Below, piece by piece: positions 18,981-29,180 of a stretch of DNA of 64,000 bases (its first letter is position 1; each line of letters begins with the position of its first letter). The position numbers were made by a program, and so were the translations under genes. The notes beneath the pieces are model-generated. The model was not told the origin of the DNA and ran no database searches. It saw only the letters and a program-made list of their open reading frames with translations. Source of the stretch: Candidatus Methanoperedens sp. (lineage in GTDB: Archaea > Halobacteriota > Methanosarcinia > Methanosarcinales > Methanoperedenaceae); contig JAPMTX010000135.1 of assembly GCA_026552855.1 (NCBI GenBank), forward strand, positions 1-64,000. The letters are read 5' to 3'.

Positions 18981-21665
18981 ATGTTCAAAAACAAAATTTG
19001 CACAGGGCATACCCTCAGGATTGGATTAACAATATTGATATTATTAACTGCGGTCGCAAGCGCAGCTCCGGCTTCAACTGGCAACCGCATATGGGATAAA
19101 AGCAAGGGAATGCCCACGACTTACACGTGGAATCCGTACAGTTTTGCAGGATTTTATTACAACCTCGATGAAAATCTGGGTACTGAAGAGCTTAAGATAC
19201 GTGACATCAAGAGAAACATAGATGAAGGCGATATCGTTTATAGAACATCTCCAATGGAGGTCAGCTTCGGTTATTCAGGTTTTGGCAAGTTCCAGGTAAT
19301 CGGCTTCATGGCTGACAAGTATTTTGCAGGCTATACCGGAAACAGCATAATCTCCAATAAGGAAACAAAAAGCGCCCTCGGCAGCAAACAACTGCACAAG
19401 ATACTCATGGATGACGACGATAAACGGGTAGTTTCTGAAGGAGGGACTTTAACTTTAAGGGAAGGTTATGTGCTGCAAATGAAAGAAGTGGATATCAGTG
19501 CAGGTCCTGGACAGGTATGGGTAACCCTGCTAAAGAACGGAGACGTGGTGGATGACGATGTCATCTCAGGGAACGACCTCTATGTATATTCGAAAAAAGT
19601 TGGAAGCGAGAGCGATATGCCCATTATAGCCGTGCACTTTGACTCCGTTTTCAGGGGCAGGGAGGTGAATGCCGCCTTTATCAAAGGCGTTTTCCAGATA
19701 TCCGAATCCTTCACACCTGTGGAAACAGGCGACAGGTACGGGGAAATGGAAATCAGCAGCGTAGGAGCGGGCGTGATCGAGATGACCAATAGGAATTCGA
19801 TCGGACTCTCTGCGGGAAATACGATAGACCTGATGGGCGATCTGAAAATCATAGTCGCTGACAGTAGTAATCTTCGGTTCGCACTATCGGTAGAAAGAGC
19901 AGGCATATTTGAGGCAAGGGGAACGATCTATCCCACAGCCTCGGAATGGACACCGATGAACTTTGGCTTGAACATCGGCGGCACGAACATAGGTTTTTAT
20001 TACGATATGGACCAGGATATAGGGACGGAAAACCTTAAGGTAGAAACCATCAGCGGCAGCTCGATCCCGGAAGGCAGATTGAAGTATTCAACATCTGCCG
20101 AAGAGATTAATTTCGATTATTCAGGTTTTGGCAAATACCAGGTAATCGGCTTCATGGCAGAGAAATACTTCGCAGGCTATACCGGAAACAGCATTATCTC
20201 CAATAAGGACACAAAAAGCACACTTGGAAGCAGGCAACTTCATAAAGTGCTTCTTGATGATGATATTAAGCGCACTATTGCACAGGGTGGAACTCTGACC
20301 CTGAGAGAGGGCTATGTGCTCCAGATGAAAGAGGTCGATACAGGCGCAGGTCCCGGACAGGTGTGGGTCGTTCTGCTAAAGGACGGGAAAGAGGTAGATA
20401 GCGATGTTGTTTCAGGAAATGATGCCTACATATACACGACCAATGCCGGAGGCGTGAAGGAACTGCCCACTATAGCCGTGCACTTTGACTCCGTTTTCAG
20501 GGGCAGGGAAGTGAACGCTGCTTTTATCAAAGGGATTTTCCAGATCTCCGAGACATTCACCCCGGTGGGAACAGGAGATAGATACGGACAGATGGAGATC
20601 ACTACCGTCGGCGCGGATGGAATACAGATGAAGAACCATAATTCTGTAGGTCTCTCTTCAGGAAGCACTGTGGACGTGATGGGTAATATCAAATTCAAAG
20701 TAGCAGATTCCAGCACTCTCAGGTTCTATCCTTTTGTCACAGTAAGCCCGGAGATGATAGCTAACCAGCTCCTGATAGATGCACCAGCCAGGGCGACTGC
20801 CGGGGATGCCGTCAATATTAAGGTTACGGCAGGCGGTAAACCTGTGGACGGAGCATCTGTCGGTATTGATTCCGATACAGGACTGACTGATAAGGACGGC
20901 ATTATCAAATATACACTGCAAAAATCAATGAAAGGCATCTACAACATTACCGCTACAAAGCTGGGATACCAGAAAGCCAGCAAGGGTATAGAGGTACAGG
21001 CATATATCGAGAACAAGCTCAGTATAGAAGCGCCTGCAAAAGCAAACCAGTTCGAAACAATAACCATACGGGTCACGATCAACGGCACGCCTGTTAAAGA
21101 CGCGGCAGTGGTGTTTGACAACACGACAGCAGGTCAGACCGATGGCACCGGCACCCTGAGATATGTATTGAACGAGAGCGGTACACACACCATATATGCC
21201 TCAAAGAGCGGCTACGCCACCGCAGCCAGGGACATATCGGTCGCGCTGCCTTTTGCAGAGTTTAAGTCACTTGATATCAGTACCTCGTCGGATGTGGTTT
21301 TTACAGGTCAGCAGGCTGTGATAAGGTCGAATGTCACAAATACAGGTACTAAAACCGATACTCTGCCCGTTGTACTTATAATTAACAGCACCGAGGTTGA
21401 AAGCAAACCTGTTACTCTTGCGCCTAAAGAGACAAAAGAGGTCACTTTTAAATATAATGTGGCTCTCCCTGCGGGCAATTATACGGTTGAAGTACTCGGG
21501 CAGAAAAAGCAGATAGAGGTCAGGGAATCGGGGGTCAGCGTCTTATCCATTATTGGAATAATAATCGGTTTAATCGGCGCCGGTGTAATTATTATCTATC
21601 TGCTGACTAAAAAAAGCAGGGAAGGTTCAGAACTGGCGGGCAAAGCCCCCGGTAAGCCTGGTTAA
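18981..21665 (+). CDS. S-layer protein with tandem DUF1608-type domains and C-terminal anchor
   Basis: 894 residues from ATG 18981 (AAAGGTGG upstream; a GTG at 18972 is possible). A signal peptide ends near ASAAPAS. Two ~300-residue copies of the S-layer-related duplication domain follow (both contain SGFGK(F/Y)QVIGFMA and [14 protein letters not shown]). Next come two carboxypeptidase-regulatory/Ig-like repeats ([26 protein letters not shown]), a CARDB-like domain, and a C-terminal membrane helix ([21 protein letters not shown]) with a basic tail. The tandem domain is the lattice-forming unit in Methanosarcinales. The extra Ig-like stalk suggests an accessory or anchoring S-layer protein. 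Its last 39 bp overlap the convergent ruvB. Confidence 0.9.
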
Positions 21666-22637
21666 ATGTTGTTTTGCCGCAGGCGTGGTCCCTCTTCCCT
21701 GCGGTGTTCTTTTTATGAATCCTACCTGTATGAGGTACGGCTCGTAAACTTCTTCTATAGTCCTTACCTCTTCTCCTACTGAGATAGCAATGGTCTTTAC
21801 ACCCACAGGACCGCCCCCGAAATCCTGCGCTATGACTTTGAGGATGCGCCTGTCAAGGTCGTCCAGCCCGAGTTTATCTATCCCCAGCAGGTTCAGGGCG
21901 CTGTCAGCCACTTCCTGCGTAATCTCCCCGGCTGCCCTGACCGTAGCGAAGTCCCTCACGCGCCGCAGCAGCCTGTTGGCGATGCGGGGAGTACCGCGGC
22001 TGCGCTTGGCTATCTCTATCGCGCCGTCCCCGGTCACAGGGATAGCCAGGATTGAGGCGCTTCGTTTCACTACCTGCACAAGCTCAGGCACAGTATAGAG
22101 ATTGAGCCTGGCTACGAAACCGAACCTGTCGCGGAACGGCGAGCCCAGCAATCCAACCTTGGTGGTCGCACCAATGAGGGTGAAGTGCTCAAGGCTGAGC
22201 TTTATCGACCTTGCGCCCGGACCTTCGCCTATCATGACATCTATCTCGAAATCCTCCATCGCAGGGTAAAGTATCTCCTCGATGACGCGGTTCAGACGGT
22301 GTATCTCGTCGATGAAAAGCACATCCCCTTTTTTAAGAGTGGTCAGTATCGCCGCAAGGTCGCCCGGGCGCTCAAGCACAGGACCTGATGTGGCTTTGAT
22401 GCCTGAGCCCATCTCATGTGCGATTATGTGCGCAAGCGTGGTCTTACCAAGACCTGGAGGTCCTGAGAAGAGTATGTGGTCAAGGGGTTCTCCTCTCTTT
22501 TTAGAGGCTTCGATAAATATCTTCAGGGATTCCTTGAGACCTTCCTGTCCGATGAACTCATCAAGCTCTGCCGGGCGGATGGTGAGGTCTTCTTTTTCTT
22601 CGTTCTGCTCTGCGGGTGAGATTATCCGTTCTTCCAT
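21627..22637 (-). CDS. ruvB: Holliday junction branch migration ATPase RuvB
   Basis: 336 residues from ATG 22637 (the domain starts MEERIISP). Walker A is [14 protein letters not shown], Walker B is LFIDEIHRL, the sensor/RuvB signature is [18 protein letters not shown], and the C-terminal winged helix is [13 protein letters not shown]. RuvB forms the hexameric motor that, with RuvA, drives branch migration. It is a bacterial-type enzyme, and archaea usually lack it. RuvA and RuvC lie just upstream on the same strand. The last codons are antiparallel to the S-layer C-terminus. Confidence 0.95.
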
Positions 22638-22707
22638 GGTTGTTCCTGATATTTTGAAAAATCCGTGCTGATTTATAGTTACCAGCATAAAATCACATAA
22701 TTAACCG

Positions 22708-22757
22708 AACCGCAGATGAACGCAGGTATAAGGTTGCATCTGCGTTCATCTGCGGTT
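22708..22757. repeat. 18-bp perfect inverted repeat element
   Basis: AACCGCAGATGAACGCAG (22708-22725) and its complement at 22740-22757 with a 14-nt loop, in the ruvA-ruvB gap. Confidence 0.75.
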
Positions 22758-22761
22758 AATT

Positions 22762-22892
22762 TTAGGTTATGTCCTATAAATGAGCCACAGAGACGCAGAG
22801 GCACAGAGAGCTTTTTGAAATATTTCTCTGTGTCTCCATGCCTCCGTGGCGATTGTTTTTATATAGGTCATGAAATTTAGGACATCACCTAA
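22762..22892. repeat. 131-bp nested inverted-repeat (MITE-like) element
   Basis: Outer arms TTAGGTTATGTCCTA (22762-22776) and TAGGACATCACCTAA (22878-22892) match at 14 of 15 positions. Inside is a second imperfect arm pair (GCCACAGAGACGCAGAGGC... at 22784 and its partner ending 22850). The core resembles the inverted repeat at 55559. Apart from this and the preceding hairpin, the 435-bp ruvA-ruvB gap holds nothing recognisable. Confidence 0.6.
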
Positions 22893-23072
22893 TTTTATAG
22901 ATAGTTATGCAGGACGCTATAATCGGATTTTCAGGCTTTTTATGCTCTACAAGCTCTTTAATTTTTCTTTTTCTGGTTTTTTTTCAATTTGTTTCTCTGG
23001 AAATTCAGTTTGCACCTCCCGGAGTTCGGAAAAATCGCAAAAGCAGAATTATGCACCGTCCCAGAGCAAATA

Positions 23073-23660
23073 CTACCTCTCCTTCAACCTCGCCAGCGCC
23101 GCCTTCACCAGCGCCTGTACCGTGGGCTCTTTCAACCCCGGCGCCACGGCATCCACAGCATCCTTAGCCTCGCGCTGCGAGAACCCGAGCGACACAAGCG
23201 CGCTCACGGCATCGTAGCTTACGCTGCTCACGCCCGCAAGAGCCACGCCCTCCATCTTCTTTTTCATCTTGTCCCTTAATTCAAGTATCAATCTCTTCGC
23301 GTTCTTCGGTCCCACGCCTGAAATGCTTGTCAGTACCTTCTCATCTTCATGGATTATCGCAGCCGCAAGCTCCTCTATCCGTATCTGCGAAAGGATGTTC
23401 ATCGCTATCTGCGGTCCCACTCTTGTCACGCTGATGAGGAGTTTGAACATCTCAAGCTCGCTCATAGTGGTGAACCCGTACAGCATGAGCGCGTCCTCCC
23501 TGACGTGCAGGTACGTGTATAATTTGATCTTCTCCTTCCTCTCTCCAATCTCCTGGAGCGCGGGCTGTGTTATGTTGATCTGATACCCGATGCCTCCTAC
23601 ATCGAGTATAACAAAACCTTCGCCGCGGTACGTTATTTCGCCGTATATGTGTGAAATCAT
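23073..23660 (-). CDS. ruvA: Holliday junction DNA-binding protein RuvA
   Basis: 195 residues from ATG 23660, the canonical RuvA beginning (MISHIYGEITYRGEGFVILD). An N-terminal OB fold, two helix-hairpin-helix motifs (LISVTRVGPQIAMNIL, LTSISGVGPKNAKRLI) and the C-terminal domain III that contacts RuvB (VSALVSLGFSQREAKDAV) are all present. RuvA binds the four-way junction as a tetramer and loads RuvB. It is only 4 bp from the GNAT gene upstream and separated from ruvB by repeats. Confidence 0.95.
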   Translation of the reverse strand: MISHIYGEITYRGEGFVILDVGGIGYQINITQPALQEIGERKEKIKLYTYLHVREDALMLYGFTTMSELEMFKLLISVTRVGPQIAMNILSQIRIEELAAAIIHEDEKVLTSISGVGPKNAKRLILELRDKMKKKMEGVALAGVSSVSYDAVSALVSLGFSQREAKDAVDAVAPGLKEPTVQALVKAALARLKER

Positions 23661-23664
23661 GGCA

Positions 23665-24186
23665 TTACACCCTTTTAAGTATCGGGTACATATTGAGATA
23701 CATCTTTGGGGTATCGCTATGCCGATACTTCTCCACAATCCTAAAACCGTGTTTTTCGTAAAACCCTACAGATTCGGGTTTGGAGTCCACTGTAATGTAT
23801 CGGCATCCAATTTCTTTAGAGATAGCTATGGCTTTACCTATTGTTGTTAATAACATGAACTTTCCGATCCCTCTTCTTTCATAATCTTTATGTACTGCCA
23901 GTCTCGCTATTTTAACCGCTGGATACCTGTGATAAAGGTATCCTGCAATTTTATCATATTCATCTATCGCTTCAACCTCAAGGGTATCGGCAACTAATGC
24001 CAAGTATCCAACTATATCCTTATTCCAGCAACATAAATAAGTCCTACTTACCATATATTCTTGATCTTTTAAAGCATCATTTTTCAAGAAATCGTTTAAC
24101 TCAGCGGATTTACAACAAAAAGAAGAATTATCAGGCATTTCGGTCAGCGGTACGATTTGGAGTTCTTTGTCTGGAGTTTTTCCCAT
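23665..24186 (-). CDS. GNAT acetyltransferase, toxin-like
   Basis: 173 residues. The acetyl-CoA loop is RRGIGK (motif A) after IARLAVHKDYE, and the end is VDSKPESVGFYEKHGF. The N-terminal SAELNDFLKNDALKDQEYMVSRTYLCC followed by IVGYLAL matches the layout of small GNAT toxins such as TacT/AtaT-type enzymes, which acetylate aminoacyl-tRNA. The 48-residue gene 7 bp upstream fits an antitoxin. No SD is seen, so translation is probably coupled to that gene. A general protein or metabolite acetyltransferase is the alternative. Confidence 0.75.
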   Translation of the reverse strand: MGKTPDKELQIVPLTEMPDNSSFCCKSAELNDFLKNDALKDQEYMVSRTYLCCWNKDIVGYLALVADTLEVEAIDEYDKIAGYLYHRYPAVKIARLAVHKDYERRGIGKFMLLTTIGKAIAISKEIGCRYITVDSKPESVGFYEKHGFRIVEKYRHSDTPKMYLNMYPILKRV

Positions 24187-24193
24187 CTAAAAT

Positions 24194-24340
24194 CTAAAAA
24201 GGATGTGCTTTATATAGACGCATGGCTTCCCTGAACATCTCTACTTGTTTCTCAGTGACCTTGGGGTTCTTCTCGTTCTTCCAGAATTCCTCGGCGTCTT
24301 TGCCTTCCAAGATCAATCCTAATTCAATAGGTTTCACCAT
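24194..24340 (-). CDS. 48-residue probable antitoxin of the GNAT gene
   Basis: ATG at 24340 to TAG at 24194. The predicted product starts MVKPIELGLILEGKDAEEF and ends FREAMRLYKAHPF. It is acidic/basic mixed and mostly helical, with no DNA-binding fold visible. The stop lies 7 bp before the GNAT start, the tight order of toxin-antitoxin pairs. It is shorter than usual RHH antitoxins (~90 residues), so only a toxin-wrapping segment may be present. A TATA-like AAAATATATA is upstream on the minus strand. Confidence 0.6.
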   Translation of the reverse strand: MVKPIELGLILEGKDAEEFWKNEKNPKVTEKQVEMFREAMRLYKAHPF

Positions 24341-24384
24341 ATTACAATACTACATCTCCTCATATTCTTTACATTATATTGCAT

Positions 24385-24400
24385 CCAACAAATCTGTTGG
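24385..24400 (-). promoter_or_regulatory. Palindrome in leader of the GNAT pair
   Basis: CCAACA-AATC-TGTTGG, flanked by ATATTG/CAATAT arms, lies between the putative TATA box (~24437) and the 48-residue gene. It is a candidate autoregulatory operator or leader hairpin. Confidence 0.45.
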
Positions 24401-24460
24401 GTCTAACAATATGCACCTTTATGTACGTAGGGGTATATATTTTTGGTGACCGAAGCTGGA

Positions 24461-24478
24461 TAACTAAAATTTTAGTTA
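24461..24478. promoter_or_regulatory. 18-bp perfect palindrome
   Basis: TAACTAAAATTTTAGTTA lies between ruvC and the GNAT pair promoter. It could be an operator, or a weak terminator for ruvC. Confidence 0.4.
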
Positions 24479-24528
24479 CCAACCTTACAAGTTTCCATAA
24501 CATTATACGGGATACGCGGAATATAAAA

Positions 24529-24999
24529 TTAACCATACTGATTTATATGGCATAACGCAATCGAAAGTCCATCCGCCGCATCGTCCGGCTGCGGGATCTC
24601 ATCCAGCCCCAGGAGCCTCTTGATCATCTCCTGCATCTGTTTCTTATCAGCCCTTCCCGAGCCTGTTACCGCCTGCTTCACCCTGTTTGGGGTATACTCG
24701 AACACTGGGATGTTCTTCTGCTGCGCCGCCAGGAAGATAACGCCCCTGGCTTCGCTCACGCTCATTGCATTGGTGACGTTCTTACTGAAAAAAAGCCTCT
24801 CGATAGCGATCATATCCGGGGCGTACTTCTCTAAAAGCGCGCAAACCTCGTTATATATTTCCATGAGACGCTCAGGCGTCTGTTTTTCAGCCGATGTCCT
24901 TATGCATCCGTAGCTGACAGGAGTGATGACCTCACCATTTTTCAGTATCACGCCGAAGCCCACGGTCGCAAGTCCCGGGTCGATGCCGATGACGATCAT
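24529..24999 (-). CDS. ruvC: Holliday junction resolvase RuvC
   Basis: 156 residues, the normal RuvC length. The RNase H-fold catalytic acids are all present: D7 (VIGIDPGLATVGFG), E67 (MIAIERLFF), and D140/D143 in PDDAADGLSIAL. RuvC is the bacterial junction-cutting nuclease; archaea normally use Hjc. With RuvA and RuvB on the same strand within 3.4 kb, this looks like a complete bacterial RuvABC set split by a GNAT pair and repeats. Confidence 0.95.
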   Translation of the reverse strand: MIVIGIDPGLATVGFGVILKNGEVITPVSYGCIRTSAEKQTPERLMEIYNEVCALLEKYAPDMIAIERLFFSKNVTNAMSVSEARGVIFLAAQQKNIPVFEYTPNRVKQAVTGSGRADKKQMQEMIKRLLGLDEIPQPDDAADGLSIALCHINQYG

Positions 25000-28691: not shown

Positions 28692-29180
28692 ATGCGCGGA
28701 TATAAAGACTACAAACAAATACTCAATAAATTCAAGCAATTACTTCTTGAGAAGTTTGGAGATAAACTTATTTCATTCGTCCTGTACGGTTCCGTAGCAA
28801 GGGGTACAGCAGGAGAAGAAAGCGATATCGATCTGCTCATCATCCTTAAAGATGCCCCGTCTGTTTATTACGAACGCCTGGAACCTGTAATAGAGATTGA
28901 GCTAAAACTGCGGGAAAGCACCTCAGAAAATACCGCGCCATCGATTTTCAGTTGTATTATCTTATCTAAGGAAGAAGCAATGGAAAACCGCAATATTTTC
29001 CTGGATATGATTGATGCCTCTATAATCCTGTACGATAGAAACAACTTTTTCAAAAACCGGCTAAAAGAACTCAAGAACAGGCTTCTGGAGCTTGTATCAA
29101 AAAAAATCGTCCTTGAAGATAAAACATGGTACTGGGACCTGAAGCCTGATATAGCGCCTGGGGAAGTCATAGAGCTATGA
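28692..29180 (+). CDS. MNT-type minimal nucleotidyltransferase (antitoxin)
   Basis: 162 residues. The polymerase-beta-type motif is LYGSVARGTAGEESDIDLLI (GSxARG...SDxD). A third acidic residue lies in the following IEIELKLRES region. MNT proteins inactivate partner HEPN toxins by adenylylation. It overlaps the HEPN gene by 4 bp (ATGA). Confidence 0.88.
   Translation: MRGYKDYKQILNKFKQLLLEKFGDKLISFVLYGSVARGTAGEESDIDLLIILKDAPSVYYERLEPVIEIELKLRESTSENTAPSIFSCIILSKEEAMENRNIFLDMIDASIILYDRNNFFKNRLKELKNRLLELVSKKIVLEDKTWYWDLKPDIAPGEVIEL

What the first reader, a model, noticed from the sequence alone, without database searches (positions are those of the whole stretch)
24194..24340. 48-residue gene in front of a GNAT: minimal toxin-antitoxin pair
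A tiny ORF ends 7 bp before a GNAT whose motifs resemble tRNA-acetylating toxins, with a palindrome in the leader. The partner is half the size of RHH antitoxins and shows no DNA-binding domain, so it would be a new antitoxin type.
Basis: partly seen in the sequence, partly recalled or inferred. Interest (0 to 1): 0.6.

Follow-up and report, generated by a model that had tools for sequence, protein, structure and literature searches.

The report
Archaeal acetyltransferase toxin with minimal antitoxin
A 48-residue protein gene next to an acetyltransferase gene in a methane-oxidising archaeon is a real, widely shared and mobile two-gene unit; it most likely encodes a growth-stopping enzyme of the tRNA-acetylating toxin group and an unusually small antidote that lacks the DNA-binding part such antidotes normally carry.

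Summary
The 48-aa ORF (24194-24340, minus) is a genuine gene: synonymous sites are saturated and median dN/dS is 0.12. It ends 7 bp before a GNAT (23665-24186, minus). Homologues occur in 57 of 394 genomes of the archaeal phylum. Of 83 homologues in relatives, 56 precede an intact GNAT, 13 a broken one and 11 none; 30 of 30 intact GNATs checked have the small gene upstream. Orphan small genes exist; orphan intact GNATs of this family were not found. The unit sits between ruvC and ruvA only in this genome and in at least 48 unrelated contexts elsewhere, so it moves as a pair. The GNAT's 38 nearest solved structures are all TA toxins (AtaT, TacT, KacT, ItaT, GmvT). AlphaFold docks the small protein on the GNAT confidently in one of two linked models (pTM 0.87), not in the other (0.73). 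No RHH or other DNA-binding domain is found. The leader palindrome is not conserved. Best reading: a type II-like GNAT toxin-antitoxin module whose antitoxin is reduced to a toxin-binding element. A 2022 paper noted such short ORFs in passing, untested. Toxicity is not shown.

The parts
24194..24340 (-). 48-aa small gene, proposed minimal antitoxin (MVKPIELGLILEGKDAEEFWKNEKNPKVTEKQVEMFREAMRLYKAHPF)
   Evidence: no Pfam, NCBIfam, PADLOC or PHROGs family
23665..24186 (-). GNAT acetyltransferase, 173 aa, proposed toxin; catalytic-type Tyr143 in FYEKHGF and acetyl-CoA loop RRGIGK
   Evidence: PF13673/PF13508/PF00583; nearest solved chains are TacT/AtaT/KacT-type toxins; Tyr143 invariant
24434..24446 (-). 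TATA-like element CCAAAAATATATA about 95 bp upstream of the small gene, possible promoter of the module
   Evidence: read directly from the sequence; inference only

Best explanation
The pair is a mobile type II-like toxin-antitoxin module. The GNAT, when free, acetylates aminoacyl-tRNA and stops translation. The 48-aa protein, made first from the same mRNA and translationally coupled to the toxin (in relatives often overlapping by a base, often with a weak TTG or GTG toxin start), binds the GNAT and blocks it. The small protein is essentially a toxin-binding element alone: a conserved LxL strand followed by two helices. It has no recognisable DNA-binding domain, so the operon is probably not autoregulated by the antitoxin in the usual way. 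Shown: gene reality, pairing, mobility, asymmetric decay, toxin-subfamily fold. Predicted by model: binding. Inferred: toxicity, tRNA target, neutralisation, lack of autoregulation.
For: Purifying selection on the small gene. Adjacent same-strand GNAT in 56 of 83 (intact) plus 13 (broken); 30 of 30 intact GNATs found independently have the small gene. About 14 intact small genes with broken or missing GNAT and no intact orphan GNAT of the family: the asymmetry expected if the GNAT is harmful alone. At least 48 unrelated contexts for 69 loci; in 13 sister genomes ruvC and ruvA are adjacent with nothing between. Distances of the two proteins correlate, Mantel r 0.76, 0 of 2000 permutations. Foldseek: top 38 hits all GNAT TA toxins, TM to target 0.77-0.88, then a drop to about 0.54. 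Closest plasmid-borne bacterial GNATs are preceded by DUF1778 antitoxin genes in the same operon position. Linked-chain model L198: small protein pLDDT 85-93, pTM 0.87, which the GNAT alone (about 158 of 246 residues) could not give, and a strand at residues 9-11 that has no partner strand within the small protein.
Against: No toxicity or acetylation test exists. The first linked-chain model (L061, short linker, no extra small-protein rows) did not dock the small protein (pLDDT 58-79, pTM 0.73). The small protein is more conserved than the GNAT in 74% of comparisons, unlike many fast-evolving antitoxins. Similarity to the DUF1778 tail is limited to a few members and not above the RHH control across the whole family.
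Confidence: 0.75

Rival explanations
1. A non-toxic acetyltransferase (metabolic, protein- or drug-modifying) with a small regulatory or stabilising subunit; the pair is mobile because it is an accessory function.
For: Makarova et al. 2009 (PMC2701414) took GNAT-RHH pairs for resistance modules; Bikmetov et al. 2022 allow different functions for GNATs outside the DUF1778 clade. High conservation of the small protein fits a constitutive subunit.
Against: All top structural relatives are TA toxins, with a clear gap to other GNATs; loss is asymmetric, with orphan small genes kept; a subunit gene should decay with its enzyme.
Confidence: 0.17
2. The small protein is itself a divergent ribbon-helix-helix repressor and antitoxin, so an ordinary GNAT-RHH module.
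For: Strand-helix-helix order in the model; CopG-type RHH proteins can be about 45 aa (own knowledge).
Against: No RHH family for the window protein even at E up to 10; the strand is acidic and hydrophobic (PIELGLVLEG) without basic DNA-contact residues; no conserved operator palindrome; profile comparison with RHH gives no in-register match. PF08681 gave no hit in 295 genomes of the phylum, but that search rang in no control either.
Confidence: 0.05
3. The short ORF is a leader peptide or upstream ORF that only regulates translation of the GNAT.
For: Position and tight spacing.
Against: Amino-acid sequence conserved with synonymous saturation, invariant F19 and near-invariant P4, G8, L9, L11, D15, A16; intact orphan copies without GNAT; predicted fold that docks on the GNAT in one model.
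Confidence: 0.03

Closest known systems
GNAT-DUF1778 type II TA systems (TacAT, AtaRT, KacAT, ItaRT, GmvAT)
   Same: GNAT of the same structural subfamily with the conserved Tyr and acetyl-CoA loop; antitoxin gene immediately upstream, often overlapping; crystal structures exist of bacterial toxins bound to the antitoxin C-terminal peptide alone (titles of 7ak8, 7ak9, 6gtq, 9ils).
   Different: Antitoxin is 48 instead of about 80-95 aa, has no RHH domain, and is not recognised by PF08681 except for subthreshold tail matches in two relatives (E 0.12 and 0.086 at profile positions 46-77).
Short ORFs before GNATs outside the 'true TA clade' (Bikmetov et al. 2022, PMC9177977)
   Same: Short ORF in front of a toxin-like GNAT, no predictable DNA-binding domain.
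   Different: That paper mentions them in one passage without families or tests; here one family is defined and its distribution, decay pattern and contexts measured.
DUF4065-GNAT (VcaA-VcaT)
   Same: GNAT toxin with a non-DUF1778 antitoxin.
   Different: The antitoxin is a DUF4065 protein; the small protein here matches no Pfam family.
PaaA2 in PaaR2-PaaA2-ParE2 and epsilon in omega-epsilon-zeta
   Same: Antitoxin without DNA-binding domain (PMC5086665).
   Different: Those operons have a third gene encoding the repressor; no such gene was seen here (upstream neighbour is ruvC).

Membership tests
GNAT-DUF1778 type II toxin-antitoxin | Toxin is a GNAT of the TacT/AtaT subfamily | tested here: met
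   phmmer E 3e-12 to TA toxins; Foldseek top 38 all TA toxins
GNAT-DUF1778 type II toxin-antitoxin | Catalytic tyrosine in FYxxxGF and acetyl-CoA loop | tested here: met
   Y143 invariant, G106/G108 conserved
GNAT-DUF1778 type II toxin-antitoxin | Antitoxin gene directly upstream in the same operon | tested here: met
   same position as DUF1778 in bacterial plasmids
GNAT-DUF1778 type II toxin-antitoxin | Antitoxin carries an RHH DNA-binding domain (DUF1778, PF08681) | tested here: not met
   no family match for the window protein; 48 aa; only subthreshold tail matches in relatives
GNAT-DUF1778 type II toxin-antitoxin | Small protein homologous to the DUF1778 C-terminal toxin-binding tail | tested here: inconclusive
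   hhalign tail score reached by 1 of 200 column shuffles; L131, L132, L191 z 5.5-6.7; but across 109 members tail and RHH controls are alike
Type II toxin-antitoxin | Antitoxin protein binds the toxin | tested here: inconclusive
   docked in model 2 (pTM 0.87), not in model 1 (pTM 0.73)
Type II toxin-antitoxin | Autoregulation at an operator in the leader | tested here: inconclusive
   palindrome not conserved; no DNA-binding domain found
Type II toxin-antitoxin | Toxin arrests growth, antitoxin relieves it | not testable with these tools
   needs expression assays
Type II toxin-antitoxin | Mobile module: patchy distribution, many contexts, orphan antitoxins but not orphan toxins | tested here: met
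   57 of 394 genomes, 25 of 136 genera; 48 contexts

The most novel reading that the evidence does not exclude
A large, cross-domain class of GNAT toxin modules uses antitoxins stripped to a 45-65 aa toxin-binding element, with no DNA-binding part and hence no classical autoregulation. It would include tRNA-acetylating toxins in archaea, and related short genes in Bacteroidota and phages (for example Bacteroides phage BS-TP1, Segatella and Parabacteroides plasmids).
Probability: 0.5. Interest if true: 0.65.

Novelty: new variant of a known kind. Interest (0 to 1): 0.5.

Why it matters
If true, it adds a recurrent archaeal toxin-antitoxin family that annotation misses (no family model, genes often too short to be called), brings tRNA acetylation as a translation block into methanogens and methane oxidisers, and offers a natural minimal antitoxin in which toxin neutralisation is separated from DNA binding, so that the need for autoregulation in such modules can be tested directly.

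Tried and rejected
Leader palindrome as operator: not conserved, within shuffle range. Homology of the window protein to DUF1778: window sequence alone z -0.5; the family-wide control removes a general claim. PF08681 in the phylum: no hit, but the control did not ring either, so uninformative about absence. Viral-contig, plasmid and phage homologues of the archaeal small protein: none by protein search. Direct search of Bacteroidota genomes: not possible with the handles at hand. First docking model failed. A Leptospira plasmid hit to a divergent member has no GNAT next to it. A first run of the intactness census used a wrong BLAST option and was redone (one search replaced).

Full report
Setting. 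The window is a contig of a Candidatus Methanoperedens-type archaeon (nearest named relatives). On the minus strand the order is ruvC (24529-24999), a 190-bp leader, the 48-aa ORF (24194-24340), 7 bp, the GNAT (23665-24186), ruvA, ruvB.

Is the small ORF a gene? Yes. In 200 relatives, 86 have a match at E <= 1, most of them strong. Across 19 copies in the genus the first 44 codons align without gaps; synonymous differences are saturated while non-synonymous ones stay low, median dN/dS 0.12. Conserved positions are M1, P4, G8, L9, L11, D15, A16, F19. No Pfam, NCBIfam, PADLOC or PHROGs family matches it.

Is the pairing real? Of 83 copies of the small gene, 56 are followed by an intact GNAT of the same family, 13 by a broken one, 11 by none, and 3 lie at contig ends. 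The independent GNAT search gave 30 loci, all with the small gene upstream. Spacing runs from short overlaps to a few bases in most, with the toxin often starting at TTG or GTG. A second set of 78 loci from GTDB genomes, all archaeal (Methanoperedens, Methanosarcina, Methanothrix, Methanoculleus, Methanospirillum, Methanoregula and others), shows the same order in most. Distances between the small proteins and between the GNATs correlate (Mantel r 0.76, none of 2000 permutations as high).

Mobility and decay. The pair lies between ruvC and ruvA only in this genome; 13 of 28 sister genomes have the two ruv genes adjacent with nothing in between. For 69 loci at least 48 unrelated contexts were counted. 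The family is in 57 of 394 sampled genomes of the phylum, in 25 of 136 genera. About 14 intact small genes have a broken or missing GNAT, whereas no intact GNAT of the family without the small gene was found. Two distant GNATs (32-36% identity) are preceded instead by a 123-127 aa protein whose C-terminus resembles the small protein. This asymmetry is what a harmful GNAT and a protective partner would leave behind; it is indirect evidence.

What is the GNAT? By sequence its best solved relatives are 7f37, TacT (5fvj, 7ak8), AtaT and KacT. The modelled fold finds 38 TA-toxin chains first (TM to target 0.77-0.88), then other GNATs near 0.54. The tyrosine of FYEKHGF is invariant and the acetyl-CoA loop is conserved. 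The nearest bacterial plasmid GNATs (Deinococcus aetherius, Acidithiobacillus caldus) follow a DUF1778 gene, so the 48-aa gene takes the antitoxin's place in the operon.

What does the small protein do? Two linked chains were modelled, using loci where small gene and GNAT are in the same frame and reading the stop codon as serine. With a short linker (L061) the small part was not placed: pLDDT 58-79, pTM 0.73, about what the GNAT alone gives. With a long natural linker and more small-protein rows (L198) it was placed: pLDDT 85-93, pTM 0.87, strand 9-11 and helices 14-24 and 32-53. If the small part were unplaced in that 246-residue chain, pTM should be near 0.67 (my estimate from the pTM formula). 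The short strand has no partner in the small protein, so it should pair with the GNAT; it falls on the most conserved stretch (LxLxGxDAxxF).

Is it a DUF1778 tail? The order strand, helix, NP turn, helix resembles the tail. PF08681 matches two relatives below threshold exactly in the tail. Three members score z 5.5-6.7 against nine tails and nothing against RHH domains. But over all 109 members tail and RHH controls give the same mean z and about the same number above 3, and the window protein itself gives nothing. I leave homology open.

Regulation. The leader palindrome at 24461-24478 is not conserved and not unusual for its composition. No DNA-binding domain or third gene is present. Classical autoregulation by the antitoxin is therefore unlikely, but untested.

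Wider distribution. Bacteroides phage BS-TP1 carries a related short protein (MARPIKNTPVLYGKDAERF..., inside an over-long annotated gene) directly before a related GNAT. Segatella and Parabacteroides plasmids, a Paenibacillus plasmid and a Latilactobacillus phage have 50-65 aa ORFs before their GNATs, some with a similar start (MAITIKNIPVLEGVTAEDF); a Methylomonas plasmid GNAT has DUF1778. Two viral contigs carry the short protein without a GNAT.

Literature. Bikmetov et al. 2022 (PMC9177977) state that GNATs outside the DUF1778 clade are preceded by short divergent ORFs without DNA-binding domains and leave open whether they are TA pairs. No paper found in the held library describes this archaeal family; subscription papers were not searched.

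Verdict. A real, mobile, TA-like pair with a minimal antitoxin-like partner; a new variant of GNAT toxin-antitoxin systems, function predicted and not shown.

Noticed in passing
window 21627-24999: Bacterial-type RuvC, RuvA and RuvB genes in an archaeon; the ruvC-ruvA junction is interrupted by segments of different size (about 200-1360 bp) in several sister genomes, so it may be an insertion hot spot.
   Followed up: partly
L354 1492-1764; L355 1501-1689: Viral contigs encode a homologue of the small antitoxin-like protein (DTPVLYGKDAxxF) with no GNAT beside it; possibly a phage decoy antitoxin against host GNAT toxins.
   Followed up: partly
L350 317-820: Bacteroides phage BS-TP1 gp121 seems annotated with too early a start; the likely protein begins at residue 99 (MARPIKNTPVLYGKDAERF) and belongs with the short antitoxin-like family.
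   Followed up: yes
L249 1561-1941; L250 1155-1523: Distant GNATs preceded by 123-127 aa proteins with a C-terminus like the small protein, in turn preceded by a conserved 231-236 aa gene: perhaps a three-gene version.
   Followed up: partly
L330-L333: Small proteins MAKPLETGLELTGEDALRFHRYMEGHEELPQRG... with no recognisable GNAT nearby; may pair with another partner or be orphans.
   Followed up: no
window 28692-29180: Minimal nucleotidyltransferase-like ORF (GSVARGTAGEESDIDLLI motif), often part of MNT-HEPN pairs; partner not examined.
   Followed up: no
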